From Propionibacteriaceae bacterium (lineage in GTDB: Bacteria > Actinomycetota > Actinomycetes > Propionibacteriales > Propionibacteriaceae): a DNA stretch of 17,134 nucleotides. The DNA lies in assembly GCA_031265725.1 (NCBI GenBank), contig JAISCH010000357.1:1-17134 (forward strand), given 5' to 3'. Numbering within the stretch: the stretch's first letter is position 1; the number at the start of each line of letters is the position of its first letter. This document shows positions 1,767 through 15,433 of the stretch, one piece after another. The notes under the pieces are model-generated. The model saw only the letters and a program-made list of their open reading frames with translations. It was not told where the DNA came from and did not search any database. The translations under genes and the position numbers were made by a program.

Positions 1767-4223
1767 ATGTTCAAACTTGCCACTCGTGAACTGAAGTACC
1801 ATCCGGCGCGATTCGTGGCGACGCTGGTAGCGATTGCGATCAGCGTCGGTTTCATGGTCGCCGCCTCCGGTATCACCACCACCATGCAGGAGGGTATGGC
1901 CCAGCGACAGACGGTCAATCTCAACAAAGCCGATATTTCCGCTGCAGCCTACCCAGAAGATTCATACCCGGCCGACAAATTGCGGCAGGCATTGTCCGCG
2001 ATACCGGGCGTGAAAGACTGTGCCCACTTGCGCGAATACACCGATACGACGAAATTCGGCGATCGCAGCGAATTCATCAGCTACTACTCGCTACCGGAAG
2101 AGCAATTCCGTTGGGCGCAGTTGCTGGAAGGCTCCTGGCCACAGGCGGACGACGAGATCGCCATCGCCGAGAGCGCGATGAAGTTGTTCCAAGCCAAACT
2201 TGGCGACTCCCTGCGGCTGACCTCACTGAACAAAGACCTGCGGGTGGTCGGGATAACCGACGATCCGCCAACGATCTCCACTCAGACCGGCTATTTGGCT
2301 CCGGAAGCCTTCTCAGCGAATTTCCCGAATGCCAATGACGCCAGTGGCCAATGGTTGCTGCAAATCGACTCGGATGCCGACCAGGCCAGCGTCATCAAGG
2401 CGGTCAATGCCGCAGTGAACACCACGGGCATCTCCGGTGAAGTGGTCAGCAAAGCCGACGCGCTCAAGGAGGCCCGGAATGGCTTCTTGCGTGATCTGGA
2501 GATTTGGAAATGGATCCTGTGGGCATTCGGCGGCATAGCGATGGTGGTGGGCATGATAACCATCTCCAACACCTTCTCCATTCTGCTCGCCGGACGGCGA
2601 CGGCAGATCGGTCTGCTCCGCGCCGTCGGTGCCAGCGGTCGTCAGGTCCGGAATTCGGTCTTCATCGAGGCGCTGCTGCTCGGCCTGCTCGGCTCGCTCC
2701 TCGGTGTGGCACTCGGCGTCACCGCCACAGTGATCGGTGCGGCAGTCACCGACACACTCAGATATGGGTTGCAGTTGCCGCTGGCCGAGATCGTCGCCGT
2801 CGGCATGTTGGGGACGTTGATCACCCTGGCGGCGGCTTTCCTGCCGACGCTGCGCTCAACCCGGGTGGCACCGTTGGACGCACTGCGTCCGGCCAGCGCG
2901 AAAACAGAGCAAAGGGCCGGGATCGTCCGGGGAATCGTCTGTGGATTGCTAGCGCTATCCGGCCTGACGATCATCACAGTCAGCCTGCAAGCCAGCGAGA
3001 ACACCCTGCTTTACAGCGTCGCCGGGGCTGGCTTATTCAGCATCGGCGTGCTCTTCGGCGCTCCGTTATTCGTCCCCGCGCTGCTCCGGTTGGCCGGGAT
3101 GGCCGTATCCCGATTCGGGCCGACCCCCAGACTGGCCGCGAAGAACGTCATCCGCAATCCGCGCCGTTCTGCGGCTACCGCGACCGCGCTGATGCTGGCG
3201 ATGGGTCTGATCGTGACGCTGCAAGTCGGTTCCGCCTCGTTGCTGCAAACTGTGCAAGACAAGATGAGCAGCAGCTATCCCATCGACATTGGAATCGACA
3301 CCAGTTGGAGTGAATCACTCGTCTCCATTCCGGAAAATGTCTTGGAGCAAGCCACCCGCGCCAAGGGCGTCGCCAGTTGGGTCGAACTGTCCGGAACCAG
3401 ATGGACCAACGAGGGCGAACAGCTATACACGTACACGGTACTCGGCTACGACCCGGCCATTACCAAGGTGGCAGCCAGCGCTCCAACGGCTTTGGCTGAC
3501 GATGTGGCCCTCGTTGCCAACAGTTCTAGCAGAATCGGCGAGGACGGCACCATCAAACTCAACGGTCTCAGCTTCAAAGCCGAAAGGACCAGGCTGCTAA
3601 ACAACGAATTCGTCATGGTCAACCCCAAACTGCTGGCCAAGATCGGCACGCCGGTTCCGGCTGTCGCACTGTGGCTGTCGGTGCCGGACCGTTCACTGGC
3701 GACCTCAGCCTACGTCGATGTGAATAGCGCGGTCAGTGACAACAGCGACCTGCGGGTCAGTGGCTCCGTCATCGACACCGCTGGTATGGAACAGGGCATC
3801 TTCCTGGTGATGAGTGTCGTCACCGCGCTACTCGGCGTCGCCATCCTGATCGCGCTACTCGGCGTGAGCAACACCCTCACCCTGTCAGTGATGGAACGCA
3901 AGCGCGAATCGGCATTGATGCGGGCGCTCGGCCTGCAAAAGTCCAGCCTGCGCGTCATGCTGCTGATCGAGGCGCTGTTACTAGCCGGAGTCGGAGCTAT
4001 CGTCGGCCTGGCCGCCGGCCTATACTTCGGCTGGGTCGGCTTACAGGCCATCATCCAAGAATCAGCCGGAGCTGGCACCACCATGCAGACCTCTTTCAGC
4101 GTAGACCTCGGCTGGACAGCCGTCCTGCTGATCAGCGCCTTTGCAGTGGCCGCGCTAGCCTCACTACTGCCCGGACGCCGCGCCGCCAGTGCCCCACCCG
4201 TGGAGGCCCTGGCCGACATCTGA
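1767..4223 (+). CDS. FtsX-like ABC transporter permease
   Basis: Membrane protein of 818 residues, partner of the ATPase just upstream; its ATG follows that TAG with no gap. One hydrophobic helix near residues 16-36 is followed by a ~200-residue extracytoplasmic MacB-type domain. A first FtsX bundle follows (around 248-370, with SNTFSILLAGRRRQIGLLRAVGA), then further central helices. A second extracytoplasmic domain and a second FtsX bundle follow, the latter with SNTLTLSVMERKRESALMRALG in the last ~140 residues. About ten helices in all. The duplicated FtsX arrangement is usual for Gram-positive exporters of about 800-850 residues. The partly duplicated motif (SNT-x-S-x(n)-R-x-x-x-ALMRALG) marks the loops that touch the ATPase. 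Such systems export or extract lipids, lipoproteins or peptides, or confer drug tolerance. No sensor kinase or regulator gene is adjacent. Confidence 0.9.
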   Translation: MFKLATRELKYHPARFVATLVAIAISVGFMVAASGITTTMQEGMAQRQTVNLNKADISAAAYPEDSYPADKLRQALSAIPGVKDCAHLREYTDTTKFGDRSEFISYYSLPEEQFRWAQLLEGSWPQADDEIAIAESAMKLFQAKLGDSLRLTSLNKDLRVVGITDDPPTISTQTGYLAPEAFSANFPNANDASGQWLLQIDSDADQASVIKAVNAAVNTTGISGEVVSKADALKEARNGFLRDLEIWKWILWAFGGIAMVVGMITISNTFSILLAGRRRQIGLLRAVGASGRQVRNSVFIEALLLGLLGSLLGVALGVTATVIGAAVTDTLRYGLQLPLAEIVAVGMLGTLITLAAAFLPTLRSTRVAPLDALRPASAKTEQRAGIVRGIVCGLLALSGLTIITVSLQASENTLLYSVAGAGLFSIGVLFGAPLFVPALLRLAGMAVSRFGPTPRLAAKNVIRNPRRSAATATALMLAMGLIVTLQVGSASLLQTVQDKMSSSYPIDIGIDTSWSESLVSIPENVLEQATRAKGVASWVELSGTRWTNEGEQLYTYTVLGYDPAITKVAASAPTALADDVALVANSSSRIGEDGTIKLNGLSFKAERTRLLNNEFVMVNPKLLAKIGTPVPAVALWLSVPDRSLATSAYVDVNSAVSDNSDLRVSGSVIDTAGMEQGIFLVMSVVTALLGVAILIALLGVSNTLTLSVMERKRESALMRALGLQKSSLRVMLLIEALLLAGVGAIVGLAAGLYFGWVGLQAIIQESAGAGTTMQTSFSVDLGWTAVLLISAFAVAALASLLPGRRAASAPPVEALADI

Positions 4224-4272
4224 GTCGGGAAGTCAGTTACGCGTCCAAGCTGGGAGGCCGAAGACAACGGGT

Positions 4273-4293
4273 TACCGGTCAGCCATACCGGTA
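4273..4293. repeat. Inverted repeat between convergent permease and fixX genes
   Basis: TACCGGT (4273-4279) and ACCGGTA (4287-4293) form a perfect 7-bp stem around a 7-base loop. The structure overlaps the fixX stop codon and lies in the 55-base gap between two convergent genes, where a bidirectional terminator is expected. There is no T-tract on either side, so termination is only a guess. Confidence 0.35.
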
Positions 4294-4578
4294 TTGCACC
4301 CCCATAGTCGGGCCGGGAAAGTGCCATTCGATCACCACCGTGCCGCCCGCCGCTATCCGACAGGTACCGCACTCCAGACAACCCGCGAAATCGAAGGTCT
4401 GGTTGCCAGCGGCGTCGATCTTATACAGCGCAGCCGGACACACCCGCACCAACTTCAAGAACTCCTCCCGGCCAGGGTCAACTGCCAACTCGATATGCGG
4501 ATTGCCCTCATCGACGGCATACTTGTTCACTCCGAGATAATCAGCCATATCCACTGTGACTGGACCCACCTTGCTCAC
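4279..4578 (-). CDS. fixX: FixX ferredoxin-like protein
   Basis: A 99-residue ferredoxin-like protein, close to the E. coli FixX length and pattern. Recognisable segments are LGVNKYAVDEGNPHIEL, VRVCPAALYK, FDFAGCLECGTCR and a C-terminal GVQYRYG. Cys47 (in CP) plus Cys67, Cys70 and Cys73 (C-x2-C-x2-C) are the likely ligands of one [4Fe-4S] cluster. In the family, FixX pairs with FixC and passes electrons towards quinone or another acceptor. The start is GTG at 4578, overlapping the fixC TGA as GTGA, so the two are translationally coupled. The open frame continues far upstream antisense-like through fixC, but only this downstream part resembles a protein family. It is the last gene of the minus-strand cluster. 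Confidence 0.92.
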   Translation of the reverse strand: MSKVGPVTVDMADYLGVNKYAVDEGNPHIELAVDPGREEFLKLVRVCPAALYKIDAAGNQTFDFAGCLECGTCRIAAGGTVVIEWHFPGPTMGVQYRYG

Positions 4579-5864
4579 AGTGCCCGCACCCCTCTCCACA
4601 AATCCTTGCCCAGCTTCAGCACACCGACCTGTTTGACCAACGGCAACAGCGACTTCCGCACTGGCTTGATGGGAGTCCCATCGACCACGAACAACTCGCG
4701 CATCGCATCCCGGGCAAGCGCCGGATACTTTTCGAACAGCCGGGTGGTGTGCTCCATGAAATCCGGAAACCGGCGCAGCGTCCGCAAATCGCGTAAGACG
4801 AATGACGACTCCAGCGCCTGCCGATACCCGGCCAAACCCGCCGCAGACGTGTCCCCGGCGGCCAATGCAGCCACAACCGCCCGGCCCGCGTGCATTCCAG
4901 CCGCGATAGCGAAATCCATCCCGCGCACCGTGTAGCCGATGTTGACACACATCATCGCCACGTCCCCGGCCAATACCACCCCATCCCCCGCCAGCGGCGG
5001 CATGGCGTCGAATCCGCCCTCCGGCACGAGATGACCCGCATGCTCAACGACTTTGCCTCCGGCGATGAGCGGCGCAACGACCGGATGACGCTTGAAGTCC
5101 TCCAACATCTGATAGATCGGGGTCTCCGACCGGGCCAGGTCCGCCACTGTGACGACCAGTCCGAGCGAGATCGAATCCCGGTTCGTGTAGACAAAACCTC
5201 CCCCGACGTGTCCCTTAGTCGGATCACCGACGAATAGCCATGCCGCACCCTCGGTATCCGATGCCACCAACACCCGGTCAGTGATTACCGGCGCTGGCAA
5301 TTCGATAACCTGTTTGATCCCAACGGCGACAGTAGCGGGCTTGGGCCTGATCGCCCCCACCGCCTGATCCGCCAACAACGAGTTCACCCCATCGCTGAGA
5401 ATCACCACATCGGCGGTGATCTCATCATCGCCGGCCCTGACCCCGGTGACTCTGGGTCCGTCCCGCAACAAGGCCTCCACGGCGATGCCATTGATGTATT
5501 CAGCCCCGGCAGCCTCCGCCCGCGCGGCCAACCACGGGTCGAATCGCGCCCGCAACACCGAATACGACGCGCACCCAACGTCCCTCAACCGCTCGTCCGC
5601 ATAGTCGAGGGTCACCCCCGCGTCCGGTGCCAGCAGCGAAATCCTTTCCCGCACGATCCGTCGCTCCAAAGGCGCGTCCGTGGCAAAATCTGGGAACACC
5701 GCCCGCAGTGAATGGGTGTAGAGCCGCCCTCCGGACACGTTTTTCGCCCCGCAGCTTTCACCTCGCTCCACCACCAGCACTGACCGTCCGGCCTTCGCCA
5801 CCTCATACGCGGCCACTGGCCCGGCCATCCCAGACCCGACGACAATGACATCGAAATCGGACAT
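4575..5864 (-). CDS. fixC: FixC, FAD-dependent electron-transfer oxidoreductase
   Basis: A 429-residue flavoprotein; E. coli FixC is essentially the same length. The N-terminus has the FAD Rossmann motif GSGMAG (10-15) and an acidic end of beta-2 (VVERGE), followed by the FixC hallmark GAKNVSGGRLYTHS. Near residue 300 is the second FAD-contact segment GDVAMMCVNIGYTVRGMDFA, also typical of the ETF:quinone oxidoreductase/FixC family. FixC lacks its own iron-sulfur domain and uses FixX, whose gene follows with a 4-base overlap. A purine-rich ribosome site (GAGAGAAAGAG) precedes ATG 5864. It is separated from fixA and fixB by three genes and lies 99 bases downstream of the transporter gene, behind a large stem-loop. 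Likely role: passing electrons between FixAB and the quinone pool or the reductase of the cluster. Confidence 0.94.
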   Translation of the reverse strand: MSDFDVIVVGSGMAGPVAAYEVAKAGRSVLVVERGESCGAKNVSGGRLYTHSLRAVFPDFATDAPLERRIVRERISLLAPDAGVTLDYADERLRDVGCASYSVLRARFDPWLAARAEAAGAEYINGIAVEALLRDGPRVTGVRAGDDEITADVVILSDGVNSLLADQAVGAIRPKPATVAVGIKQVIELPAPVITDRVLVASDTEGAAWLFVGDPTKGHVGGGFVYTNRDSISLGLVVTVADLARSETPIYQMLEDFKRHPVVAPLIAGGKVVEHAGHLVPEGGFDAMPPLAGDGVVLAGDVAMMCVNIGYTVRGMDFAIAAGMHAGRAVVAALAAGDTSAAGLAGYRQALESSFVLRDLRTLRRFPDFMEHTTRLFEKYPALARDAMRELFVVDGTPIKPVRKSLLPLVKQVGVLKLGKDLWRGVRAL

Positions 5865-5895
5865 CTGTCTCTTTCTCTCTCGAAGCTGTCACCAA

Positions 5896-5942
5896 TAGGT
5901 CCGGTTGCCTGACGACGTTGCGTCATCGGACAACCGGACCTA
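5896..5942 (-). repeat. Strong two-level stem-loop between MFS gene and fixC
   Basis: TAGGTCCGGTTG (5896-5907) pairs perfectly over 12 bp with CAACCGGACCTA (5931-5942). Inside it TGACG (5910-5914) pairs with CGTCA (5921-5925) around a six-base loop. It lies in the transcript between the transporter stop and fixC start. No U-tract follows on the minus strand, so it may be an mRNA processing or stability element, a factor-dependent terminator, or a protein-binding site rather than a simple terminator. Confidence 0.7.
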
Positions 5943-5963
5943 CCAGTGATATGGCCAAAACGA

Positions 5964-7227
5964 CTAAGACCCGCTCACCGGCGCGGGATCGAACTTTGCC
6001 ACATAGTCCTTGCCGACCCTGCCCGCCACGATGTAGAGCAGGCAGGCGATGGCGGTGAAACCGGCGGACAGGTAGAAGGTGATCCGATAATCACTGCCTG
6101 CCGCTATCTGGTTGTAGACGGGGATGAAGATGCTGGAGCCAAGAGTCGTGGCCAGTGAGACACCGCCGAAGATGGCGCTGTATTCCTTCATACCGAAGGT
6201 CTTGCGGACGTAGACCGGTGGCTCAATGTTGTAGACGCCAAGGCCCAAACCGAAGACGGCGGCCGCCACATAGATCAGGCCGGTGTTGTCGAACGCCAAG
6301 GCAACCATGATGAGACCGATGATAGTCACGACGCCACCGATGATGTTGGCCTGGTCGACACCGAACTTATCGGTCAGCATACCCAGGAATATCTTGCCGA
6401 AGATGAGCCCGAAGGCGCAGCAGGAGACAATGACACCGGCTTGGATCGCGTCGAATCCAAGGTTGGCCTGGCCATAGGTGTTGAGCAGTTGGTTCGAGGC
6501 CGTCATAATCGAGAAGCAGAACTGGCCGATGAACATCAGATAGAACGCCGGTGTCTTGAACGACTGCTTCTGGGTCACGCCACGAGCCGGAGCCTGGACG
6601 GGTTTCGTCGCCGGGCCCGTACCTCCGTCGAGAGGAGCGCCGTAGGGCAGCAAGCCCTTCTGTTGGGGCGTCTTCAGCAGGAACAGCGCGACCGGAATAG
6701 TCAAACACTGCGCAGATTATGCCGACAGCGAAGAATCCGGTCCGCCAACCGCCCGACTTGATGATCGCGCCGACGACGATGTTCATAATCATGGAGCCGA
6801 TACCGCTGAAGGCCAGTGCCACGCTCATGGCGAAGCCAGTACGCTCGCGGAACCACATCATGATGATGCTGGGGACAGCGATGAAGTAGACGACGCTGGC
6901 ACCGATGGCGACCACAACGGAGACGGCATAGAACTGCCAGACCTCCTGGCAGACGCCGTAAAGAGCGGCACCGATGGCCAAGACCGCCGATCCGGCGGCT
7001 ATCACGGTGCTGGGGCTGAGGACGGCCATGATCAGCGCACTGACGGATAGATAGATGGACAGGGTAGTGATGGGAATATCAAGATCCTGGCTTATCGGGT
7101 AGAGGAATACTGCGGAGGTTCCGCCGACGGTTCCAAGCGAACCCGTGACGAGGACGCAGCACGCGACCATGACGACCCAGGCATATGGGGTCTTGGCGGT
7201 GCCGCCCGTGGTCGATGTGTCGGACAT
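5964..7227 (-). pseudogene. MFS transporter (OFA/OxlT-like) broken by a +1 frameshift
   Basis: Two frames together encode one 12-helix major facilitator. The N-terminal half runs from ATG 7227 (good ribosome site, GGGAGG) to about codon 174. The C-terminal half continues one base out of frame from 6704 to 5964. Removing one T from the TTT at 6703-6705 joins ...ICAV to LTIPVALFLL and gives a natural 420-residue protein. Unrepaired, the first frame runs on to an unrelated tail ending at 6367. Helices 1-6 lie around residues 17-178; the C-half retains a motif A-like loop (GMLTDKFG). The equivalent N-half loop between helices 2 and 3 is missing: ALIMAVLSP passes straight into STVIAAGSAVLAIG. Position in the cluster suggests uptake or exchange of the pathway substrate, probably an organic anion. 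Either a real double lesion or partly a sequence error. Confidence 0.8.
6703..6705 (-). other. Frameshift site in MFS gene
   Basis: On the minus strand GCA GTG TTT GAC carries one base too many; GCA GTG TTG ACT restores the transporter frame. The run is only three T, a modest target for slippage or sequencing error. The site does not match the prfB-type +1 site, because no stop codon lies in the zero frame. Confidence 0.75.
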
Positions 7228-7242
7228 GGCAAGCCTCCCTTT

Positions 7243-7256
7243 CTAGTTGCTAGTTG
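7243..7256. repeat. 7-bp tandem repeat in MFS leader
   Basis: CTAGTTG occurs twice head to tail just upstream of the ribosome site of the transporter gene. It is short, and its meaning is unclear. Confidence 0.4.
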
Positions 7257-7344
7257 AGATTGGAAAATAGGAATTCAGGCACTCGGCGTCCCGGCCGACT
7301 AATAGCGTCAGCCAGACCGAGACTCCGCGTGATTATGGATTGTT

Positions 7345-7358
7345 TCTAGATCGCTAGA
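7345..7358. promoter_or_regulatory. TCTAG inverted repeat upstream of MFS gene
   Basis: TCTAG (7345-7349) and CTAGA (7354-7358) are separated by ATCG. The repeat sits about 120 bases upstream of the transporter ATG in a 232-base gap, where a separate promoter or operator is plausible. No convincing -35/-10 pair was found beside it. Confidence 0.3.
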
Positions 7359-7394
7359 TATCTGAAACGTTGACGGATGAGCAAAGTTTTATTT

Positions 7395-7454
7395 GTCCGG
7401 GGTCCCCGAAAAGTACCGGACCGCAGCGAAGCGGAGGGAGGACACTTTTTGGGG
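7395..7454 (-). repeat. Complex stem-loop element between SDR2 and MFS genes
   Basis: CCCCGAAAAGT (7404-7414) pairs with ACTTTTTGGGG (7444-7454) with one mismatch. Inside, CCGC (7421-7424) pairs with GCGG (7431-7434). A competing stem joins GTCCGG (7395-7400) to CCGGAC (7416-7421), so at least two folds exclude each other. It lies immediately after the SDR2 stop in transcript direction. It could be a partial terminator or processing site uncoupling the transporter from the upstream genes; it also has the look of a dispersed palindromic repeat. Confidence 0.6.
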
Positions 7455-7459
7455 CTTAG

Positions 7460-8275
7460 TTAGTGGGCGGTGTTCTTGCCGCCATCGGTTGCCCAGATGG
7501 CACCGCTGATGTACGACGCGGCGTCGGACAGGGTGAACAGGACGACCTCGGCCTGTTCGATGGGATCGCTGACCCGATTGAGCGGCACCCGGTCATGCAT
7601 GGCTTTGAGGTAGCCATCGCCCATCTTGTGCCAGTTCTCATCCATCTTCAGTGATGCGATCGGACCGGGGCAGATGGCGTTGACTCGAATATTCTGCGGT
7701 CCGTACTCGTCGGCCGCCGTCTTCGTCATGCCAAGCACGGCGTGTTTGGAAGTCGAGTAGCCCGTCATGTCGGGCTGACCGAGCAGGCCGACCTCGGAGG
7801 ACGTGTTGGTGATGGCTCCACCCTTGCCTTGCTTTACCATCTGGGCAGTCTCGTACTTGAGCAGATAGAAAGTCCCGTAGGCGTTGGTCTTCATATGCAA
7901 GTCGAATTCATCGGACGGGTAGTTTTCCGTCTTGGTGAGGAATTGAAAATAGCCCTGGTTGTTGGCGGCCAGATTCAACTCCCCGAATTTCTCCACCACG
8001 AAAGCCACCAGAGCGGCGCATTCGGGCTCATTCTTGACATCACAATGTTTGAAATAGGCCTCGCCACCGGCATCACGGATGGTTTGCGCCACGGCTTCGC
8101 CCTCGTTGTCAAGAATGTCGCCAATGACGATTTTGGCACCTCGCGCTGCTCCGAGCCGGGCAATCCGTTCGCCAGTATTACGGGCACCGCCCACCACCAG
8201 CAGAACCTTGCCCGCCAGCGACAAAGAGCCGAACGGTTCGGAATAGTCTTGTGCTCTCAAAAGGCTGTCGGTCAT
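7460..8275 (-). CDS. Short-chain dehydrogenase/reductase (SDR2), divergent
   Basis: Start ATG 8275 is chosen because AAGGAG lies 8-9 bases before it; the frame is open further upstream, but that would overlap the preceding gene. The protein has 271 residues. The catalytic set is present: Ser160 (TSSEVG), Tyr173 and Lys177 (YSTSK), with Asn131 in KTNAYGT. The cofactor loop is unusual: VGGARNTG (28-35) in place of TGxxxGIG, and AANNQG instead of the usual NNAG. Asp53 at the end of beta-2 favours NAD(H) over NADP(H). The C-terminus DAASYISGAIWATDGG is typical SDR. It follows the acyl-CoA dehydrogenase-like gene by 40 bases and is surely in the same operon. It probably oxidises or reduces a hydroxyl/keto group of the pathway substrate; the specificity is not readable. 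Confidence 0.9.
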   Translation of the reverse strand: MTDSLLRAQDYSEPFGSLSLAGKVLLVVGGARNTGERIARLGAARGAKIVIGDILDNEGEAVAQTIRDAGGEAYFKHCDVKNEPECAALVAFVVEKFGELNLAANNQGYFQFLTKTENYPSDEFDLHMKTNAYGTFYLLKYETAQMVKQGKGGAITNTSSEVGLLGQPDMTGYSTSKHAVLGMTKTAADEYGPQNIRVNAICPGPIASLKMDENWHKMGDGYLKAMHDRVPLNRVSDPIEQAEVVLFTLSDAASYISGAIWATDGGKNTAH

Positions 8276-8315
8276 AGTCTTGTCTCCTTGTTCTATGCGT
8301 GATTCAATCTTGGGA

Positions 8316-9482
8316 TCAGTCGGACAGGGTGTACTTGACACCGAGGCCGAGGACGGACTGGGCTACCTGCTGGTAATGCCCAGTAGTCGGACGGTCGGCG
8401 GCAAGCATCGTTAAAGCGTCACGGACGTAACGGGCCACACCGACCTCTTCATTGACACCGATGCCGCCCCACAATTCCATGCACCCTCGGGAGACCCGGG
8501 CGAACATGTCCGTGCAGTACGGCTTGACCATGCTGGTGTGCGGCTTGCCGCCGTAGCCAGTCTGGAAACCCTTGAGCGTGTTGTGGAGGAAGCACTGAGC
8601 CGCCTCGACCTCAATGGCGAAACCAGCCAGCCGGTCAGCTATCACACTCATATCCGCCAATGGGACGCGGTGCGTCGTGCGCTGTTTCAGATAGTCGATG
8701 GTCTTGGCGAGGACGCCCTGGGCACCGCCGACCGCACAGCAGCAAGCACCGATATAGCCGGAGGCATTGCCTCGGCGGTCGGCCTCGGTGCCAGGCGGGA
8801 TGGGGCAGACCTGATCGCCTGGGACTCGGACGGATTCATAGGACACCACGGCATTCGCCGTGCCAGCCAGGCCGAGCTTGCGCTCGAACGGCTCGACCTT
8901 GACGCCGGGGGTCTCAACATCGACATACCACTGGTGCCATGAGCCATCGTCGCCCATGCCCGACGCGAAATGATACTTGGCGATCCCGGCGTAGGTGCCG
9001 AACAGTCGCGTGCCGTTGAGAATCCAGTCATCGCCGTCCCGCCGACCGAATACCGGCGCTTCGGTGTGGTTGAAGGAACCCGCTGGATCGGTGCCAGTGA
9101 AGGTGAACTTGGCCGTGCCGTCGAGGGCTTCCTCCAAGTACTTATCAACTAGTTTGGGTGCCAAGCCGACAAGGTAGTAGGCCTCGCCGATGGCGGGGGC
9201 CAGCGCAAAGGCCATAGCTGGACTGATCTTCGCCCACTCCTCTTCGATGAGCCATTTGATGACGGGACCGTGGCCGCCACCGCCCAGCTTCTCCGGCAGC
9301 ATCAGATGGTAGAACCCGAGTTCACCCATCCGCTTCGCCAAGTCCCAGGGATATTCATTGCTGGCGTCGATCTCGGCCACCCGGGGGGCGATCTCGTTCT
9401 CGCCGAATTCTTTGGCCGTCTGCAGGATGAGTTGCTCTTCCTCGGTCAACTCGATATACCAATTCGCTTCATAATCGCTCAT
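8316..9482 (-). CDS. Acyl-CoA dehydrogenase-like flavoprotein, catalytic Glu not conserved
   Basis: 388 residues, the usual length of the family, starting at ATG 9482 behind AAAGGAG. The order is classic: N-terminal helices (with LPEKLGGGGHGP near 65-75), a middle beta domain (WILNGTRLFG, PGVKVEPFERKLGLAG), and C-terminal helices ending with MELWGGIGVNEEVGVARYVRDAL. Several signatures are altered: the usual T-E-P-x-A-G-S-D reads GTDPAGSFN, and the R-x-x-F-G segment reads RTTHRVP. In the MCAD-type position of the catalytic Glu (after the RDA segment) an ungapped alignment gives Asp363, and the alternative IVD/LCAD-type helix position also shows no Glu. This favours an enoyl-reducing or other non-standard role, like CaiA beside Fix proteins. 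It lies 54 bases after fixB, whose product with FixA should be its electron partner. Confidence 0.88.
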   Translation of the reverse strand: MSDYEANWYIELTEEEQLILQTAKEFGENEIAPRVAEIDASNEYPWDLAKRMGELGFYHLMLPEKLGGGGHGPVIKWLIEEEWAKISPAMAFALAPAIGEAYYLVGLAPKLVDKYLEEALDGTAKFTFTGTDPAGSFNHTEAPVFGRRDGDDWILNGTRLFGTYAGIAKYHFASGMGDDGSWHQWYVDVETPGVKVEPFERKLGLAGTANAVVSYESVRVPGDQVCPIPPGTEADRRGNASGYIGACCCAVGGAQGVLAKTIDYLKQRTTHRVPLADMSVIADRLAGFAIEVEAAQCFLHNTLKGFQTGYGGKPHTSMVKPYCTDMFARVSRGCMELWGGIGVNEEVGVARYVRDALTMLAADRPTTGHYQQVAQSVLGLGVKYTLSD

Positions 9483-9536
9483 ATTTGCTCCTTTGCTTTT
9501 ACTACGTGTTATTGCTGAATGAGTGATGGTGCCGGG

Positions 9537-10436
9537 TCAGGACAGCGCCGCGATCAGTTGTGGCACGACGCTGCGGTAGTCTCCGACGATGCCGTAGTCA
9601 GCGTTGCGGAAGATGGGGGCGTCCTTGTTGATGTTCACGGCAGCGATGAGTTTGGCCTCACGGACGCCGTACAGATGCTGAATCTGGCCGGAGATACCGA
9701 CTGCCAGATAGAGGTCCGGGCTGAGATTCAACCCGGAAACCCCGATGTACTGGTCAAACCAGCCACGTTCCTCGCAGACTCCCCGGCTGCAACTGACACC
9801 GCCACCAAGCAGCTTCGCCAGAACTTCCAATTGCGCCAGATCAGCTTGGTCGGACACACCCAGACCGACCCCGACGACAGCGGGTGCCGTGGTGAGGTCG
9901 GCTTGGCCACCACCGGCGTCTGCGCGCTCAATCAGTATGACCCGTCGGTCGGTTTCCACCGTCACCTCGTCGATGGGGCTCTCTCCACCAACTGTCAGCG
10001 GTGTGGCGGCTCCGGCACCCACGGTCAGGACGGCCAACTCTTCAACCTGACCAGTCTCAATGAGTTTGCCGCCGTAGGTACTGCGCTGGGCGGTGAAGCC
10101 ACCGCCGTCCGGCGCAATGTGGCTGGCCCCGCTGATCATTCCGGCCCGGCAATGACCCGCTACCCTGGCTGCCAAATCCCTACCCCGGATTGTGTCCCCG
10201 ACTAGCAGGGCTTTCGCCTTTCGCTCTTGCAGCAACTCCGCCAGTGGCCGGGAGTAGTTCTCAATCACCTCGTCGTCGGACTTGAGGACGAGTACCTGGG
10301 TTGCTCCCAGGGTAGTCAGTCCCGGCGCGACTTGGCCGAGGGAAACGAGCACAACCGGATCACCTAGAGTCTGGGCCAACCCGACCAATTCGGCCGCCAA
10401 CTTTGGGCTGTCACTGTAAACGAACACGCCGCTCAT
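9537..10436 (-). CDS. fixB: FixB, electron transfer flavoprotein alpha subunit
   Basis: 299 residues, slightly shorter than E. coli FixB. The C-terminal FAD domain of ETF-alpha is clear: YIGVSGLNLSPDLYLAVGISG, IQHLYG, then INKDAPIFRNADYGIVGDY. The N-terminal half (VFVYSDSPKLAAELVGLA, KALLVGDTIRGRDLAARVAG) is the usual nucleotide-fold-like domain. It forms a heterodimer with FixA in the cytoplasm and moves electrons between dehydrogenases and FixC/FixX. Its ATG overlaps the fixA stop (ATGA), with a strong GGAAGGAGGGG ribosome site inside fixA. An open frame on the opposite strand covers much of this gene but is a shadow. Confidence 0.94.
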   Translation of the reverse strand: MSGVFVYSDSPKLAAELVGLAQTLGDPVVLVSLGQVAPGLTTLGATQVLVLKSDDEVIENYSRPLAELLQERKAKALLVGDTIRGRDLAARVAGHCRAGMISGASHIAPDGGGFTAQRSTYGGKLIETGQVEELAVLTVGAGAATPLTVGGESPIDEVTVETDRRVILIERADAGGGQADLTTAPAVVGVGLGVSDQADLAQLEVLAKLLGGGVSCSRGVCEERGWFDQYIGVSGLNLSPDLYLAVGISGQIQHLYGVREAKLIAAVNINKDAPIFRNADYGIVGDYRSVVPQLIAALS

Positions 10437-11206
10437 GAGATAGTCCCCTCCTTCCTGAGCGCTTCGATGAACTCAGCCACATTGGTGGCCTCATCCGGAC
10501 CGTCAAACACGAGTTGTTTGCGGTTGTTCTGCAGACCAGTCACGGCAGTGACCGTCACCGCCGGAGTGGCATCGACGCTGAGGCTGGCGAATTCCAGCGT
10601 GTGCTGGGGCTTCCTCTTCGCCGCCAGAATGGCCTTCATCCCCGGCAGGTCCGGATTGTTGATCTCCGGCAGGACGGCGACGACGGCTGGCAAAGGCAGC
10701 GCAAGTGTCTCGAATGAGTCCTCCAACTTCCGGCTGACCTTGAGTGATCCGCCGTCAGTCTCGACCGAGACGACACTCGTGACAGTCGGCCAATCCAGCA
10801 CCGCTCCGAGCCGTGAAGCTGTCTGGCGACCGTACCGATCACTGGACCCTTCGGCGCAGATGACCAAGCCGACTTCCGGCATGGTCTTAATGGCTTTGGC
10901 CAACGCCTCAGTGACGACGCGATAGTCGGACGGTGCTTCAGCCCCGCAATCAATGAGATAGACCTCCGCAAGACCCCGCGACAAGGCGTCTTTCAACCCG
11001 GACGCGGCGGCACTCGACCCGAGCGTCAACCCAAGCGGCATCCCGCCGGATTTGGCCGCCACTTGGACGGCCGCCTCGATGGCATTACGGTCGTACTCGC
11101 TGATCTTCGACTTGGCCCGGCTGAAGTCGGGTGTCAGACTGGCGTCAACAACTACGTCAGCCTCGTCGTAGACCCATTTGAAGCAGGCGATCACGTTGCT
11201 GGACAT
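10433..11206 (-). CDS. fixA: FixA, electron transfer flavoprotein beta subunit
   Basis: 257 residues from ATG 11206, preferred over the upstream TTG at 11212 because the AAGGAG box is then 10 bases away rather than 4. Family marks are CFKWVYDEADVVVD near the N-terminus, the FixA-type segment DFSRAKSKISEYDRNAIEAA, the nucleotide-binding region AEGSSDRYGRQTASRLG, and LPLPAVVAVLPEINNPDLPGMKAILAAKRK. These match the FixA branch rather than housekeeping EtfB. In some bacteria FixABCX bifurcates electrons from NADH to ferredoxin and quinone; in the carnitine pathway it supplies electrons for crotonobetaine reduction. It lies 24 bases after SDR1 and overlaps fixB by 4 bases, so the two subunits are made together. 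Confidence 0.94.
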   Translation of the reverse strand: MSSNVIACFKWVYDEADVVVDASLTPDFSRAKSKISEYDRNAIEAAVQVAAKSGGMPLGLTLGSSAAASGLKDALSRGLAEVYLIDCGAEAPSDYRVVTEALAKAIKTMPEVGLVICAEGSSDRYGRQTASRLGAVLDWPTVTSVVSVETDGGSLKVSRKLEDSFETLALPLPAVVAVLPEINNPDLPGMKAILAAKRKPQHTLEFASLSVDATPAVTVTAVTGLQNNRKQLVFDGPDEATNVAEFIEALRKEGTIS

Positions 11207-11230
11207 ATCCAAGACACTCCTTAAATTCGC

Positions 11231-11998
11231 TCAGGCGGCAGTGTGCCCACCATCGAGGACGAAGGCCGCGCCAGTCGTATAGCCAGAGGCATCCGAGAGC
11301 AGGAAGGTCACAGCTTTGGCGATCTCCTCGGGCTTGCCGGTCCGCCCGATGGGGATCCGGTCGACCATCTGCTGATAGATCTCGGGGAAGCTCTTCCGCG
11401 TGCCGGCTACCGCCTCTGTCTCGGTAACCCCGGGGCAGACAGCGTTGACCCGGACGTTGGTCCGCGCGTATTCGAGGGCCGCACTGCGGGTCAGTCCGAC
11501 TACACCATGCTTGGACATCGAATAGCCAGCGAGACCGGCGGAACTGCCGACGATCCCGGAGTTGCCGGAGAAGTTGACGATGGCGCAGGGGGTGTCCTGC
11601 TTCAGCATCTGCTTGATCTCGTATTGGCAGCAGAGATAGACGCCGACGGCATCGACCATGACCATCTGCACTAAGTCGTCATACTTGACGTCGACCAACT
11701 TCATGTTGGGGATCGCATACCCGGCGGCATTGACCGCATAGTCGAGTGAGCCGAAAGTGTCCACTGCGAATTGGACCATCGCCTCGATGTCGTCTGGTTT
11801 GATCATTTCGGCGGCGATGAAAGCCACCTGCTGACCCGACTGCTTGAATTCCTTTTCGACGGCGGCCCCTTTCTCAGCATTCCGGTCAGCGATGACCACC
11901 TTGACGCCTTCACTGAGCAAGGTTTCGACAACCGCTCGTCCGATACCTTGTACGCCGCCGGTCACGATGGCGACCTTGCCTGCCATTTTCAGGTCCAT
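11231..11998 (-). CDS. Short-chain dehydrogenase/reductase (SDR1), first gene of the fix cluster
   Basis: 255 residues from ATG 11998, chosen for the AAAGGGAG site just upstream; an ATG ten codons earlier lacks one. All classical SDR marks are visible: TGGVQGIG (13-20), Asp38 after beta-2 (NAD preference), NAAG (90-93), Tyr159 and Lys163 in YSMSK, and the C-terminal SDASGYTTGAAFVLDGG. The serine is either Ser144 or Ser147, since NFSGNSG is one residue longer than usual. The likely reaction is NAD-dependent oxidation of a secondary alcohol or 3-hydroxyacyl group. As the promoter-proximal gene of the cluster it probably acts on the entering substrate. SDR2 is a second, more divergent member, so the pathway may have two different hydroxyl/keto steps. 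Confidence 0.92.
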   Translation of the reverse strand: MDLKMAGKVAIVTGGVQGIGRAVVETLLSEGVKVVIADRNAEKGAAVEKEFKQSGQQVAFIAAEMIKPDDIEAMVQFAVDTFGSLDYAVNAAGYAIPNMKLVDVKYDDLVQMVMVDAVGVYLCCQYEIKQMLKQDTPCAIVNFSGNSGIVGSSAGLAGYSMSKHGVVGLTRSAALEYARTNVRVNAVCPGVTETEAVAGTRKSFPEIYQQMVDRIPIGRTGKPEEIAKAVTFLLSDASGYTTGAAFVLDGGHTAA

Positions 11999-12022
11999 AC
12001 TGGCTCCCTTTGAGATGAAAGC

Positions 12023-12040
12023 GGCCACACCGTCGTGGCC
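12023..12040. promoter_or_regulatory. Inverted repeat GGCCAC-N6-GTGGCC in SDR1 leader
   Basis: A perfect 6-bp inverted repeat (12023-12028 and 12035-12040) lies just downstream of the proposed start of transcription of the fix cluster. It could be an operator or a 5' mRNA hairpin. The right arm is itself part of the palindrome GTGGCCAC. Confidence 0.5.
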
Positions 12041-12048
12041 ACGGCCCT

Positions 12049-12078
12049 AATCTAAGAGCTGGCCACCAGGCCTGTGAA
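12049..12078 (-). promoter_or_regulatory. Candidate promoter of the SDR1-fixAB-ACAD operon
   Basis: On the minus strand TTCACA (12073-12078) matches the -35 consensus at five of six positions. An 18-base spacer separates it from TAGATT (12049-12054), which matches four of six. Transcription would start near 12042, giving a leader of about 44 bases before ATG 11998. Confidence 0.45.
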
Positions 12079-12304
12079 TCAGCAAAGGGCCGGAAATCAC
12101 AGCCGGTATTCGCCACATTTGTCGAAACTATGGAACCGGCTTTGCGGCGTTATTGAGTTGGGCTGATGATCCCTAAGACAAATAGCTGAACTCTGATCTC
12201 CAGCCTTGAACAGTTGTAGAAAACACCTTGTCACAGGCATATTGAGCAGATGTTTGTCCGCCAGTGGACGGGGCTTTCACTACTGCTTGGGTGATCGGAA
12301 AACC

Positions 12305-12333
12305 TTGTGACGATTCCGGCCCCTAGGTAAAAT
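12305..12333 (+). promoter_or_regulatory. Candidate promoter of the PucR-type regulator
   Basis: TTGTGA (12305-12310) and TAAAAT (12328-12333) are spaced by exactly 17 bases. Transcription would start near 12340, which rules out the TTG at 12337 as a start codon and supports ATG 12376 with its AAGGAGG site (12365-12371). Confidence 0.6.
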
Positions 12334-12375
12334 AAATTGCCTGACCCTTCGTCACGCATGTCGCAAGGAGGCCGC

Positions 12376-13911
12376 ATGTTGTGCAGCGATATTGTTCAAG
12401 CGCTTCAACGAGATTACTCGGTCACGGAAGTGGCTTCACTACCGTCACTCGATATCACCGATGTGCGACTCCTCGACACCTACACCCTCTCCTTTGATCC
12501 CAACACGCTCTATATCGGCTCGTACCAGGAGATCGGCGACACTGGCCGACTTGGCCCGCAAGCTCCACTCATTCTCTGCGGCTCGGTGCCCGAGGGGTTC
12601 GCCGCCGCGCACCTATGCCTCTCCATCGCTCCAGAGAACGAATTGGCCCAAATTTTCAACGCCGCCAAAGACTATTGCCTGGGCGATCTCGTCATGAAGG
12701 GGGAACTGGCCAAGTTCCTCATCTCGTCCAAGAGCGGATACCTGGCCGATATGGTCAACGAGACTGCCAAGGCACTGGGCAATCCCGTCATCGTCATGGA
12801 CATATCCTTCAACGTCCTCGCCTACTCCGACTCGTTCACCTCGGGCGACGAGTGGTGGAACGAATTCATCCAGTCCGGCCGGTTCATGCCCGATCTGCTC
12901 AAGCACTCGCTGGCCGCCGACGCCAGTCTCGAAGTCGAGGGCAACGAACCTTTCCTGGTCACAACTTGCACTCTCAGCGAGACGCCGAAGCTCTCCACCC
13001 GACTGACGGTCGATGACAAATGGGTCGGATCGCTGGTGATGCGGGCCTGTTGCACGCCGATCAACCCCCGGCACTACCGGCATCTGAGCGTGATAAGTCC
13101 CATCATTTCCGAAGCAGTGGCATCGCTGTCGAAGTTCAAACACATTGGGACCGTTCAGGAGAAACTGTTGGGCGATATCCTTGATGCCCCCGACAACAAC
13201 GCCCTGTCGGATGCGTGTCTGGCGCTCAACAATTTCGCCAACGAACTACCCGACCGGACGGCCCTCATCGTCTTTCAGAACGCCAAGGGTCTGCCCACCC
13301 GTAACAGAGTCTCCTATCTGCGTTTCAACTTGAAAGAACTATTTCCCGACTCCTATGTCATCTACCACGAGGACCATCTCACCATGCTGGTGCCGGTGGA
13401 CCAGGACCGAGTGACCCTCAACGACGCCCAGCAGACCACACTTGACTCCTTCATCCAGGCGGAGCAGTTGCTGGCCGGAGCGAGCCACGTCTTCGCCGAT
13501 ATAGGCCAACTGCCCAACGCCTTCCAAGAAGGCCTCCGCTCACTAGACCATTGCTCACCGGCATCCCCATTCCGGAACTGGCATGAGTGCGTCTTCGCTG
13601 AATTGGTCCACGAATACGCCCGCGTCCATTCCACCGCTGACCTCATCCATCCCGCCCTCCGCCTGGTCGAGACACACGACCGACTCCACGGCTCCGAATT
13701 GAGCAAGACCCTCCGCGTTTATCTGGAAAACGATAAGAACATCGAACGCTGCACCCAACTCCTCCACCTACATCGCAGTTCGGTCTACTATCGCCTCAAC
13801 CGAGTCAAAGAATTGGCCCACCTCAACATTGACGATCCCGAAGTCTCGTTTCAATTGCTCTGTTCCTACCGAATCCAGCAATACCAGTCCCGCCGCACCA
13901 CACTCACCTGA
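12376..13911 (+). CDS. PucR/CdaR-family transcriptional regulator
   Basis: 511 residues from ATG 12376, which has an ideal ribosome site (AAGGAGG, five bases away); upstream in-frame starts lack one. The C-terminus (about 441-480) is the PucR-type HTH, with SKTLRVYLENDKNIERCTQLL followed by LHRSSVYYRLNRVKEL. The middle region resembles the GGDEF-like/GAF-like part of CdaR-type regulators: LGNPVIVMDISFNVLAYSD (around 135) looks like the start of a sensor domain. The N-terminal ~110 residues match no domain I can name. It is transcribed away from the SDR1-fix cluster and is the natural candidate for its activator, probably responding to the pathway substrate. This role is inferred from position only; the gene could also be autoregulated through the shared region. 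Confidence 0.88.
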   Translation: MLCSDIVQALQRDYSVTEVASLPSLDITDVRLLDTYTLSFDPNTLYIGSYQEIGDTGRLGPQAPLILCGSVPEGFAAAHLCLSIAPENELAQIFNAAKDYCLGDLVMKGELAKFLISSKSGYLADMVNETAKALGNPVIVMDISFNVLAYSDSFTSGDEWWNEFIQSGRFMPDLLKHSLAADASLEVEGNEPFLVTTCTLSETPKLSTRLTVDDKWVGSLVMRACCTPINPRHYRHLSVISPIISEAVASLSKFKHIGTVQEKLLGDILDAPDNNALSDACLALNNFANELPDRTALIVFQNAKGLPTRNRVSYLRFNLKELFPDSYVIYHEDHLTMLVPVDQDRVTLNDAQQTTLDSFIQAEQLLAGASHVFADIGQLPNAFQEGLRSLDHCSPASPFRNWHECVFAELVHEYARVHSTADLIHPALRLVETHDRLHGSELSKTLRVYLENDKNIERCTQLLHLHRSSVYYRLNRVKELAHLNIDDPEVSFQLLCSYRIQQYQSRRTTLT

Positions 13912-13998
13912 CCCGTCCCACACCGTCAGCGGAGCACGGGCTTACTCGGACGGCCAATGGCGGGGTCCGGCTATCAGAGCGGGGCTTGGCCCGTTGGG

Positions 13999-15225
13999 TC
14001 AATCTGAGGGGGGTGGTTTTGGACGGGATTGGAGGTGGCGGACTTCGGGGAAGCAGAGTGCGCCTAGGGTTACTGCTATGACGACCAAACCACTTAGACC
14101 CATTGCTAGATGGATGCCGAACAGTTCTGACATCGGGGCGGCGATTAGCAGGCCTAGCGGGCCGAGGACTAGGGAGCCGAAGGCGTCGTAGGCGGCCACT
14201 CGGGAGAGGACTTCGGGAGGAACTTCCAGTTGCATGGTGGTCATCCAGAGCACGGTGAAGAATTCAAAGCCGAAACCCATCGCCACTGCGGCGAGCACTA
14301 CAAATGGGACAGGGACGCTCAGCCCGAGCAGTAAGGCTGGCACACCGGCGGTTAAGGTGACCAAGGTGCCGACAAAGATCGGGTGTTTGGGCATCCAGCG
14401 CAAAGAGATGATCACGCCCACTCCAGCACCCAGCGCCTCGCCAGTCAGGATCGCTGTCCAGGCGACCGGCCCGCCAAGTTCCTCCTTGGCCAGGACTGGT
14501 CCAAGCACACCGTGGGAAGCGTTCAGCATCATCACCACGAAGGCATACTGCAGCACTACCACCCAGAGCCACTGCCGGGAGCTGAATTCCTTCCAGCCCT
14601 CTTTCAACTGGGTGAACAGATTGGGCGAGGACGAGGGCTGCGGTTTGTTGACCGGCAGGAAACAGACCAAGGTAGCGGAGCACAGGTAGAGCAGTCCGGT
14701 AGTGATCACCGCCCACCCGCTGCCCAGGAAAACGACGGCGGCGCCAGCGGCCACCAATCCGAACAACCTGGCCGCTGCCGATGCCATCTGCAGCCAAGAA
14801 TTTCCCTGTTGCAGCTTGTCGGCGGGCACGATCTCCGGGATGATCCCGGTAAAGGCCGGGTAGAGGACCGCCCCGGCAATCCCAGTGATCGACGCCGCCG
14901 CGCAGATCGGCGCGATCGCACTCGACTCGGACCAGATCAGCACCCCGATGGTGACCCAGCCCAAGCCCATGGTGAACATTCCCAATTGGAGCACTCTGGC
15001 CCGTGGGTAGCAGTCGGCGATGACCCCGCCGAAGAGGATCAGCAAAACCTGCGGCATCACCTGGAAGAAGAGCACCACGGAGAGATGCTGATCGTCGCCC
15101 CAAGGCAGCGCGAGGATGCCGAACGCCAGCGCCACCGGCCCGAAAGCGAAGCCGAGCATAGCCGCCGTCCGCCCGATCAGCAGCAGGAAGAACGAACGGT
15201 CGTTAAGCAATTCATTTCTGCCCAT
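13999..15225 (-). CDS. MFS efflux-type permease (MFS_3/MDR type)
   Basis: 408 residues with about twelve hydrophobic helices and no long hydrophilic insert. The opening MGRNELLNDRSFFLLLIGRTAAMLG is typical of the EntS/macrolide-efflux MFS_3 group. Motif A is partly kept as GGVIADCYPRARVL (66-79). A conserved-looking PAFTGIIPEIVPADKLQQGNS follows, corresponding to the loop before helix 5 in this group. Such proteins usually export drugs or siderophores; the substrate is not readable. It converges with the PucR-type gene, 87 bases apart, and has its own leader, so it is probably independent of the fix cluster. A purine-rich site (GGAAAGGA) lies about 12 bases before ATG 15225. Confidence 0.85.
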   Translation of the reverse strand: MGRNELLNDRSFFLLLIGRTAAMLGFAFGPVALAFGILALPWGDDQHLSVVLFFQVMPQVLLILFGGVIADCYPRARVLQLGMFTMGLGWVTIGVLIWSESSAIAPICAAASITGIAGAVLYPAFTGIIPEIVPADKLQQGNSWLQMASAAARLFGLVAAGAAVVFLGSGWAVITTGLLYLCSATLVCFLPVNKPQPSSSPNLFTQLKEGWKEFSSRQWLWVVVLQYAFVVMMLNASHGVLGPVLAKEELGGPVAWTAILTGEALGAGVGVIISLRWMPKHPIFVGTLVTLTAGVPALLLGLSVPVPFVVLAAVAMGFGFEFFTVLWMTTMQLEVPPEVLSRVAAYDAFGSLVLGPLGLLIAAPMSELFGIHLAMGLSGLVVIAVTLGALCFPEVRHLQSRPKPPPSD

Positions 15226-15271
15226 TTAGACCCATCCTTTCCAGCCAAACCAGACGACGGCACAGCCGACC

Positions 15272-15301: not shown

Positions 15302-15307
15302 CACCTT

Positions 15308-15424: not shown

Positions 15425-15433
15425 TCTTAGCGC

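What the first reader, a model, noticed from the sequence alone, without database searches (positions are those of the whole stretch)
4279..11998. Split fixABCX cluster with two SDRs, a dehydrogenase homologue and a transporter
fixA and fixB are separated from fixC and fixX by an acyl-CoA dehydrogenase-like gene, an SDR and an MFS gene. All lie on one strand with short gaps or 4-base overlaps (larger gaps flank the MFS gene), downstream of a divergent PucR-type regulator. E. coli has fixABCX as one block beside the carnitine genes. Here the order reads like one dedicated pathway: two NAD-linked oxidations or reductions, an enoyl-type step and its own electron chain. Substrate unknown. The set may be an undescribed anaerobic reductive or dehydrogenating pathway.
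Basis: partly seen in the sequence, partly recalled or inferred. Interest (0 to 1): 0.7.

Follow-up and report, generated by a model that had tools for sequence, protein, structure and literature searches.

The report
Fix-linked redox operon, apparently CoA-free
A draft bacterial genome carries a conserved set of genes that seems to add or remove hydrogen on an unknown small molecule through a Fix electron chain, using an acyl-CoA-dehydrogenase-like enzyme that has lost a CoA-holding residue and sits beside alcohol-dehydrogenase-type genes instead of CoA-attaching ones.

Summary
In detail: on the minus strand run SDR1, fixA, fixB, an acyl-CoA-dehydrogenase homologue (ACAD), SDR2, MFS, fixC, fixX, with a divergent PucR-type regulator. 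One correction: the MFS gene is broken here. The set recurs: one metagenome contig appears to carry ACAD, SDR1 and FixC, and a genome of another class has fixA-fixB-SDR-MFS-ACAD-fixC-fixX. The split fixAB/fixCX is ordinary: carnitine-type operons of the same genus have it. What is unusual is the ACAD. It belongs to a clade (22 sequences, one 100/99 branch) that lost the CoA-binding Arg of the DxxR pair; its catalytic Glu is Asp. Clade members have an SDR within 1.5 kb in 6 of 8 loci not used to frame the rule, against 0 of 37 Arg-bearing ACADs; a CoA-transferase or ligase in 0 of 13 against 10 of 37. Two sit beside oleate hydratase, three have an acetoacetate-decarboxylase-family gene. My reading: a CoA-independent ketone/enone redox step, the SDR-made ketone replacing the thioester, coupled through non-bifurcating FixAB and FixCX to menaquinone. 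Substrate and direction are unknown. A new variant of the cai/fix kind.

The parts
11231..11998 (-). SDR1, classical short-chain dehydrogenase fold whose catalytic Ser is Gly145; Asp after strand 2 suggests NAD(H) (recalled rule)
10433..11206 (-). FixA (ETF beta); no RXGV or GXXSPTXV bifurcation motif
9537..10436 (-). FixB (ETF alpha); RSTYGG where group-2 ETFs have RPXFGG; 4-base overlap with fixA
8316..9482 (-). acyl-CoA-dehydrogenase-fold flavoprotein; Tyr243 at the CoA-binding Arg, Asp363 at the catalytic Glu
7460..8275 (-). SDR2, short-chain dehydrogenase with Ser-Tyr-Lys kept but VGGARNTG in place of the glycine-rich motif
5964..7227 (-). MFS transporter (nearest curated models: conjugated bile salt, L-lactate and oxalate/formate MFS, all far below cut-off), broken by a frame change near 6,700 and an in-frame gap of about 11 residues
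4575..5864 (-). FixC, ETF-quinone-oxidoreductase-like; groups with the carnitine-operon FixC of the same genus
4279..4578 (-). FixX, ferredoxin-like, four Cys (one [4Fe-4S] expected); 4-base overlap with fixC
12337..13911 (+). divergent PucR-type regulator (HTH_30)

Best explanation
An operon for a CoA-independent redox pathway on a small hydroxy/oxo compound. SHOWN: gene content, recurrence of the set, loss of the CoA-binding Arg and change of catalytic Glu to Asp in the ACAD, association of such ACADs with SDR genes, and absence of bifurcation motifs in FixAB. INFERRED: an SDR interconverts a secondary alcohol and a ketone with NAD(H). The ketone then plays the part the CoA thioester plays in ordinary acyl-CoA dehydrogenases: it acidifies the neighbouring C-H, so the ACAD-fold flavoprotein can reduce the conjugated C=C (or form it), with Asp363 as proton donor or base. 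Electrons pass between this FAD and menaquinone through FixAB (a plain, non-bifurcating ETF) and FixCX (ETF-QO-like). By analogy with carnitine the likelier direction is reduction, with the substrate as electron acceptor. The MFS gene would import the substrate and the PucR-type protein would control the operon; in this assembly the MFS gene is broken.
For: (1) Active site: Arg-to-Tyr/Phe in 7 of 7 close relatives (window included) while 125 of 132 other ACADs keep Arg; Asp (6) or Cys (1) for Glu, which 116 of 132 keep. In SCAD D269 contacts the pantetheine arm and R272 is named with it as a contact of hexanoyl-CoA (PMC13027082, passages). (2) One origin: 22 Arg-less and 57 Arg-bearing ACADs are parted by one branch, 100/99. 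(3) Context within 1.5 kb: SDR in 10 of 13 Arg-less and 0 of 37 Arg-bearing loci; 6 of 8 against 0 of 37 without the rows that framed the rule, Fisher p 3.4e-6; CoA-transferase or ligase 0 of 13 against 10 of 37. Within 4 kb: SDR 7 of 8 against 0 of 19; CoA-transferase or ligase 0 of 8 against 12 of 19. (4) Free-acid chemistry in relatives: oleate hydratase beside L265 and L277, ADC family in L153, L154, L242; these are the hydratase and isomerase types of free-fatty-acid saturation, whose enone step acts on an oxo acid (PMC13365329, passages). (5) Recurring operon. (6) FixAB lacks RXGV and GXXSPTXV; FixC passes the ETFQO_UQ-bd cut-off (28.7 against 27.7).
Against: The Arg-less clade is not wholly free of CoA-type genes: L242 has a 2-hydroxyacyl-CoA-dehydratase-family gene and L167, L265, L277 have a crotonase-family gene. 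L152 and L242 have no SDR near by. The Asp of DxxR is poorly conserved anyway (52 of 132 others), so only the Arg speaks. Asp at the catalytic position occurs in CoA enzymes too (ACAD10-12, PMC11153573; GDG in cyclohexanecarboxyl-CoA dehydrogenase, PMC8360864; passages). Loss of one Arg does not prove loss of CoA binding. Oleate hydratase is not commoner in genomes with an Arg-less ACAD: 4 of 14, against 3 of 8 genomes where I saw none; only the adjacency in two loci counts. The window's genome has none, but is 59.7% complete, so CoA genes too may lie elsewhere. SDR1 has lost its catalytic Ser and the MFS is broken. Kinship among loci makes the p value too small.
Confidence: 0.5

Rival explanations
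1. CoA-dependent variant of the carnitine-type pathway: the substrate is a CoA thioester made by enzymes encoded elsewhere, and the SDRs act on hydroxyacyl/oxoacyl-CoA, as in beta-oxidation.
For: Same split fix layout as the carnitine-type operons of the genus; FixC closest to carnitine-operon FixC, 100/99; crotonase or CoA-dehydratase genes in some Arg-less loci; SDRs lie within 4 kb of 23 of 80 ACADs found in genome contigs.
Against: Arg of DxxR lost in 7 of 7; 0 of 8 Arg-less loci with a CoA-transferase or ligase match within 4 kb; relatives with oleate hydratase or ADC.
Confidence: 0.25
2. The same CoA-free chemistry run oxidatively: the operon degrades an alicyclic or hydroxy acid, the ACAD desaturates a ketone, and FixABCX passes the electrons to menaquinone.
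For: Nothing in the sequence fixes direction; FixCX is ETF-QO-like; an Asp base is compatible with desaturation.
Against: The Fix operons with a proposed direction in propionibacteria (carnitine) are described as serving an electron acceptor (PMC7650540, passage); I saw no further catabolic genes in the window.
Confidence: 0.25
3. A decaying, no longer working operon: MFS broken, SDR1 inactive.
For: Frame change and missing residues in MFS; catalytic Ser lost in SDR1.
Against: Gly at that site is shared by both other SDR1 orthologues, so it is old and kept; the other operon genes are open frames; a frame change in a draft genome may be an error.
Confidence: 0.1
4. FixAB bifurcates electrons and the operon makes reduced ferredoxin at the expense of NADH, with the ACAD or quinone as the high-potential acceptor.
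For: Fix family name; FixB keeps the Arg of the R-x-x-[YF]-G-G segment.
Against: RXGV and GXXSPTXV absent, RPXFGG reads RSTYGG; that Arg is found in sequences of all five ETF groups (PMC10734219, passage).
Confidence: 0.05

Closest known systems
Carnitine (cai/fix) operon of Propionibacteriaceae: L195 of the same genus; gene set published for P. freudenreichii (PMC11007987, passages)
   Same: in L195 fixAB and fixCX are separated by substrate enzymes and an MFS gene; FixC 75% identical; an ACAD and transporters in the operon
   Different: CaiA, CaiB and a CaiC-like ligase (CoA-dependent) there; here an Arg-less ACAD and two SDRs and no CoA-attaching gene found
E. coli caiTABCDE and fixABCX
   Same: ACAD-type reductase served by FixABCX (recalled; the pairing is restated in PMC11007987)
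Free-fatty-acid saturation pathway of Lactiplantibacillus plantarum (CLA-HY, CLA-DH, CLA-DC, CLA-ER)
   Same: SDR makes and unmakes a ketone next to a C=C on a free acid; some relatives of the window ACAD lie beside oleate hydratase or ADC-family genes
   Different: no hydratase or ADC in the window; the enone step would be done by an ACAD-fold enzyme with FixABCX instead of CLA-ER
Caffeyl-CoA reductase CarCDE (6fah)
   Same: ACAD-fold reductase with ETF; best PDB hit by sequence
   Different: CoA-dependent and bifurcating; its ETF shows the REGV stretch
Equol gene cluster (PMC8898433, passages)
   Same: fixAB in 18 of 18 and fixCX in 13 of 18 clusters beside reductases acting on a non-CoA substrate
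   Different: different reductases (DZNR, DHDR, THDR); not compared here by sequence

Membership tests
carnitine cai/fix operon | CaiA, CaiB and CaiC genes | tested here: not met
   ACAD scores 85.8 bits against the CaiA cut-off of 540; no CoA-transferase or ligase query matched within 4 kb of it
carnitine cai/fix operon | fixAB and fixCX with transporter in one gene row (layout of L195) | tested here: met
acyl-CoA dehydrogenase fold family | N, middle and C domains and overall fold | tested here: met
acyl-CoA dehydrogenase (CoA-dependent enzymes) | CoA-binding Arg of DxxR | tested here: not met
   Tyr243; 7 of 7 relatives lack Arg
acyl-CoA dehydrogenase (CoA-dependent enzymes) | catalytic Glu at the YEG or IVD site | tested here: not met
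   Asp363 at the YEG site; the residue before Tyr243, the IVD site as I read it, is Gly (Ser in P0007; alignment)
group-2 (bifurcating) ETF | RXGV and GXXSPTXV in the small subunit | tested here: not met
   motifs from PMC10734219 (passages); bifurcating chains show REGV
group-2 (bifurcating) ETF | RPXFGG in the large subunit | tested here: not met
   RSTYGG; Arg kept
FixCX / ETF-QO-like | FixC-type flavoprotein with ETF-QO quinone-site domain | tested here: met
   NF007450 507 against 466 and PF21162 28.7 against 27.7 are passed; the FixC-specific NF007542 (462.8 of 610) and the FixX model NF011993 (99 of 166) are not
classical SDR | Ser-Tyr-Lys and glycine-rich motif | tested here: inconclusive
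   SDR1 has Gly for Ser but TGGVQGIG; SDR2 has Ser-Tyr-Lys but VGGARNTG
free-fatty-acid saturation pathway | oleate hydratase in the genome | tested here: inconclusive
   none found in G000, which is 59.7% complete
free-fatty-acid saturation pathway | ADC-family isomerase and enone reductase activity | not tested
   no ADC match in the window; rest of the genome not searched for it; activity needs the bench

The most novel reading that the evidence does not exclude
A clade of acyl-CoA-dehydrogenase-fold flavoproteins, found here in two classes of actinobacteria, has given up CoA. With a ketone made by a partner SDR in place of the thioester, its members are FixABCX-coupled enone reductases (or ketone desaturases) of anaerobic respiration on free hydroxy/oxo acids. 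One sub-branch is the enone reductase of fatty-acid saturation; the window holds another branch for a transported substrate.
Probability: 0.4. Interest if true: 0.75.

Novelty: new variant of a known kind. Interest (0 to 1): 0.56.

Why it matters
Proteins of this fold are commonly annotated as CoA enzymes. A single clade marked by a lost Arg and an SDR neighbour can be recognised from sequence and would turn such annotations into candidates for CoA-free enone or ketone redox chemistry, coupled to a quinone by Fix proteins. It gives a directly testable idea of how these actinobacteria may use unsaturated or hydroxylated free acids as electron acceptors, including an alternative enone reductase for fatty-acid saturation.

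Tried and rejected
Split fix as the novelty: rejected, it is the layout of the genus's own carnitine-type operons. Shikimate/quinate or hydroaromatic substrate: considered from SDR hits to 4-hydroxycyclohexanecarboxylate dehydrogenase models (below cut-off); a paper search gave nothing relevant (listing only); left open. Bile-acid substrate: the MFS hit to the conjugated-bile-salt model is far below cut-off (71.8 and 43 of 400); not pursued. Bifurcation: rejected on motifs, with the caution that none of the 25 FixA tested there has them, so the positive control is only the PDB chains. Close relatives in genome contigs: a first scan with the window protein found none and a second with the alignment gave 80 kept loci, all at 25-30% identity. 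Riboswitch or other Rfam RNA: none at gathering score. The gap between SDR2 and MFS folds somewhat better than shuffles (z -1.93) and was not followed; promoter and terminator scans were at about chance. 16S typing of the genome: no match. Plasmid records: 1,246 with a match, all under 60% identity, best listed 27.7%. Mosaic origin of fixAB and fixCX: FixC groups with carnitine FixC (100/99) while the best FixA identities are 44-47%, but the FixA tree is weak (72/81), so this is only a hint.

Rows left out of counts: of the 38 matches listed only the 30 with a locus were scored (8 second matches in the same genomes were not); of those listed only the 20 with a locus. The SDR queries include SDRs from some of the Arg-less loci, which favours finding SDRs there; the 8 new loci are free of that, though one (L214) is a near copy of an earlier one (L155), and for these two the Arg column rests on a gapped stretch. 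Some Arg-bearing loci repeat loci (L224, L260, L261). CoA-attaching genes were sought with only two CoA-transferase and two ligase sequences.

Literature: searches were (open-access PMC only). None of the listings I saw showed an Arg-less, SDR-linked ACAD clade; the listings are capped and subscription journals are not covered. Papers: only passages were read, of PMC8898433, PMC6085437, PMC10734219, PMC11007987, PMC7650540, PMC7024585, PMC13365329, PMC8360864, PMC13027082 and PMC11153573.
Full report
What is there. Between 4,279 and 11,998 on the minus strand lie, in order of transcription, SDR1, fixA, fixB, an acyl-CoA-dehydrogenase (ACAD) homologue, SDR2, an MFS gene, fixC and fixX; a PucR-type regulator (HTH_30) starts on the other strand at 12,337. 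Gaps are 24, -4, 54, 40, 232, 99 and -4 bases. The MFS gene is broken: its halves are in two frames that change near 6,700, and against three relatives about 11 residues are missing after 'LSP'. The window is one contig of a draft genome of 1.87 Mb, 59.7% complete. Two genomes of the same genus have contigs whose lengths equal those of records named Propionibacteriaceae bacterium (104,907 and 20,663 bases), so I take the genus to belong to that family.

Is the set conserved? In the protein search (best 8,000 candidates scored) the ACAD has only six relatives above 31% identity (85, 77, 74, 67, 46 and 45%; one from a Gracilibacteraceae MAG, one from Adlercreutzia sp. R7). It has no close relative in the 29 other genomes of its genus, where the best hits are ACADs at about 30%. 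One relative lies on a contig of 16,009 bases; SDR1 (72%) and FixC (72%) also have relatives on a contig of that length from the same sources, so the operon very probably exists in a second population. In a genome of another class of the phylum (G731, which I take for Coriobacteriia) the order is fixA-fixB-SDR-MFS-ACAD-fixC-fixX, with ACAD 42% identical and the same Tyr and Asp (L240). G378 has a divergent PucR-type gene, then SDR-MFS-ACAD-fixA-fixB and part of fixC up to the contig end (L243). G021, same genus, has ACAD-SDR-ACAD-SDR-fixA-fixB-MFS (L266). G482 has SDR-ACAD-fixA-fixB-fixC-fixX (L241).

The split fix is not the news. Ten of 30 genomes of the genus have a FixC hit at E <= 1e-60. 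Six of the fetched loci show ACAD, CoA-transferase, fixA, fixB, a CoA-ligase, and then fixC and fixX, with fixAB and fixCX about 4 kb apart (L195-L198, L200, L201). L195 was annotated in full: MFS, alpha/beta-hydrolase, CaiA (691 bits against a cut-off of 540), CaiB (666 against 413), fixA, fixB, a CaiC-like ligase (592.7 against 651, below cut-off), a MaoC-domain protein, MFS, fixC, fixX. Much the same gene set is described for P. freudenreichii (caiABC, fixABCX, two MFS genes, a hydrolase and an enoyl-CoA hydratase; PMC11007987, passages); the passages do not say whether fix is split there. A second layout, fixA-fixB-CoA-transferase-ACAD-transporter-ligase-fixC-fixX, is L202. The window's FixC falls with the carnitine-type FixC proteins (100/99, 75% identity). 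The window's own genome also carries a CaiA-like ACAD that groups with that of L195 and part of another FixC on separate contigs (L209, L203). The window operon is therefore the familiar layout with the CoA-attaching enzymes replaced by two SDRs.

Neighbours. Within 4 kb, SDR genes lie beside 7 of 8 Arg-less ACADs, 0 of 19 Arg-bearing ACADs (17 of them with fixA within 4 kb), and 23 of 80 ACADs from genome contigs; a CoA-transferase or CoA-ligase match lies beside 0 of 8, 12 of 19 and at most 3 of 80. I then scored the loci of two later searches by the Arg column and looked within 1.5 kb: an SDR in 10 of 13 Arg-less and 0 of 37 Arg-bearing loci, a CoA-transferase or ligase in 0 of 13 and 10 of 37. 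Without the rows used to frame the rule it is SDR 6 of 8 against 0 of 37, Fisher p 3.4e-6, which ignores kinship. One of the two misses (L216, seen whole as L243) has its SDR about 1.4 kb away, beyond an MFS gene, mostly outside the stretch scored.

A hint of the chemistry. In the Phe sub-branch, an oleate hydratase (732 bits against 567) stands directly before ACAD-SDR-crotonase-fixA-fixB-fixC-fixX in G816 (L265), and a 74% identical one stands divergently before ACAD-SDR-crotonase in G823 (L277). An acetoacetate-decarboxylase-family gene stands between ACAD and SDR in L153 and L154 and lies further down in L242. Hydratase, SDR, ADC-family isomerase and enone reductase are the four enzymes of free-fatty-acid saturation in L. 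plantarum, in which a ketone on the free acid is set next to the C=C (PMC13365329, passages). The missing member in these loci is the enone reductase, and the ACAD with Fix would fill it. Against making too much of this, oleate hydratase was found in 4 of 14 genomes with an Arg-less ACAD and in 3 of 8 genomes where I saw none. I extend the principle, not the substrate, to the window: an MFS of the lactate/oxalate/bile-salt kind (all weak) suggests a small transported acid, and no oleate hydratase was found in this genome.

Electron path. FixA and FixB hit E. coli-type FixA/FixB and related ETF models best, below their cut-offs. The group-2 bifurcation motifs RXGV and GXXSPTXV are absent and RPXFGG reads RSTYGG (motifs from PMC10734219, passages). 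FixC passes one FixC-type subfamily model (NF007450) and the ETF-QO quinone-site cut-off but not the FixC-specific model; FixX is below its model's cut-off and has four Cys. I infer ACAD-FAD to FixAB to FixCX to menaquinone, or the reverse, without bifurcation.

The SDRs. SDR1 has Gly145 at the catalytic Ser; its two orthologues share Gly and all 117 other homologues aligned have Ser. Of 14 SDRs from the window and the Arg-less loci, only SDR1 lacks it (read from the alignment). SDR2 keeps Ser-Tyr-Lys but has VGGARNTG. Asp at the end of strand 2 in both points to NAD(H) (recalled rule). SDR1 may therefore do something other than plain alcohol oxidation.

Against the reading. L242 carries a 2-hydroxyacyl-CoA-dehydratase-family gene, three loci carry crotonases, and L152 and L242 have no SDR near by. 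One lost Arg is not proof of lost CoA binding; the genome is incomplete; direction and substrate are unknown; the MFS is broken in this assembly.

Verdict. The split fix is ordinary. The Arg-less, SDR-linked ACAD is the real find: a new variant of the cai/fix kind, with a testable prediction of CoA-free enone or ketone redox chemistry.

Noticed in passing
L265 (G816:C1:458000-477900) 7440-15567; L277 (G823:C58) 100-5566: Oleate hydratase beside an Arg-less ACAD, SDR and crotonase (with fixABCX in L265): candidate FixABCX-coupled enone reductase for free fatty acids.
   Followed up: partly
L154 9251-12190; L153 7932-11012; L242 314-10342: Arg-less ACADs with acetoacetate-decarboxylase-family genes, two of them between ACAD and SDR; L242 also has a 2-hydroxyacyl-CoA-dehydratase-family gene and a CooC-like ATPase.
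   Followed up: partly
G000 contigs C146 (L209) and C46 (L203): The window's own genome has a CaiA-like ACAD and part of a second FixC on other contigs, so it probably also has a carnitine operon.
   Followed up: partly
G000:C287 (L166) 3050-5861: A further ACAD-fixA-fixB set with Glu and Arg kept, as in many genomes of the family.
   Followed up: no
L150 9635-10813: The Arg-less ACAD of G364 is interrupted by an in-frame TAG; its relative L151 is intact.
   Followed up: no
window 7228-7459: 232-base gap between SDR2 and MFS with hairpins (z -1.93); may separate two transcription units.
   Followed up: no
window 13999-15225: A second MFS gene (efflux-like models, all below cut-off) 51% identical to a gene near the fixX end of the carnitine operon of G021 (L195).
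   Followed up: no
window 957-4223: By eye an ABC transporter: ATP-binding gene and a large permease; not tested with profiles.
   Followed up: no
window 15537-17035: A 422-residue ORF without an NCBIfam match, by eye an AAA-type ATPase, and a small antitoxin-like ORF on the other strand.
   Followed up: no
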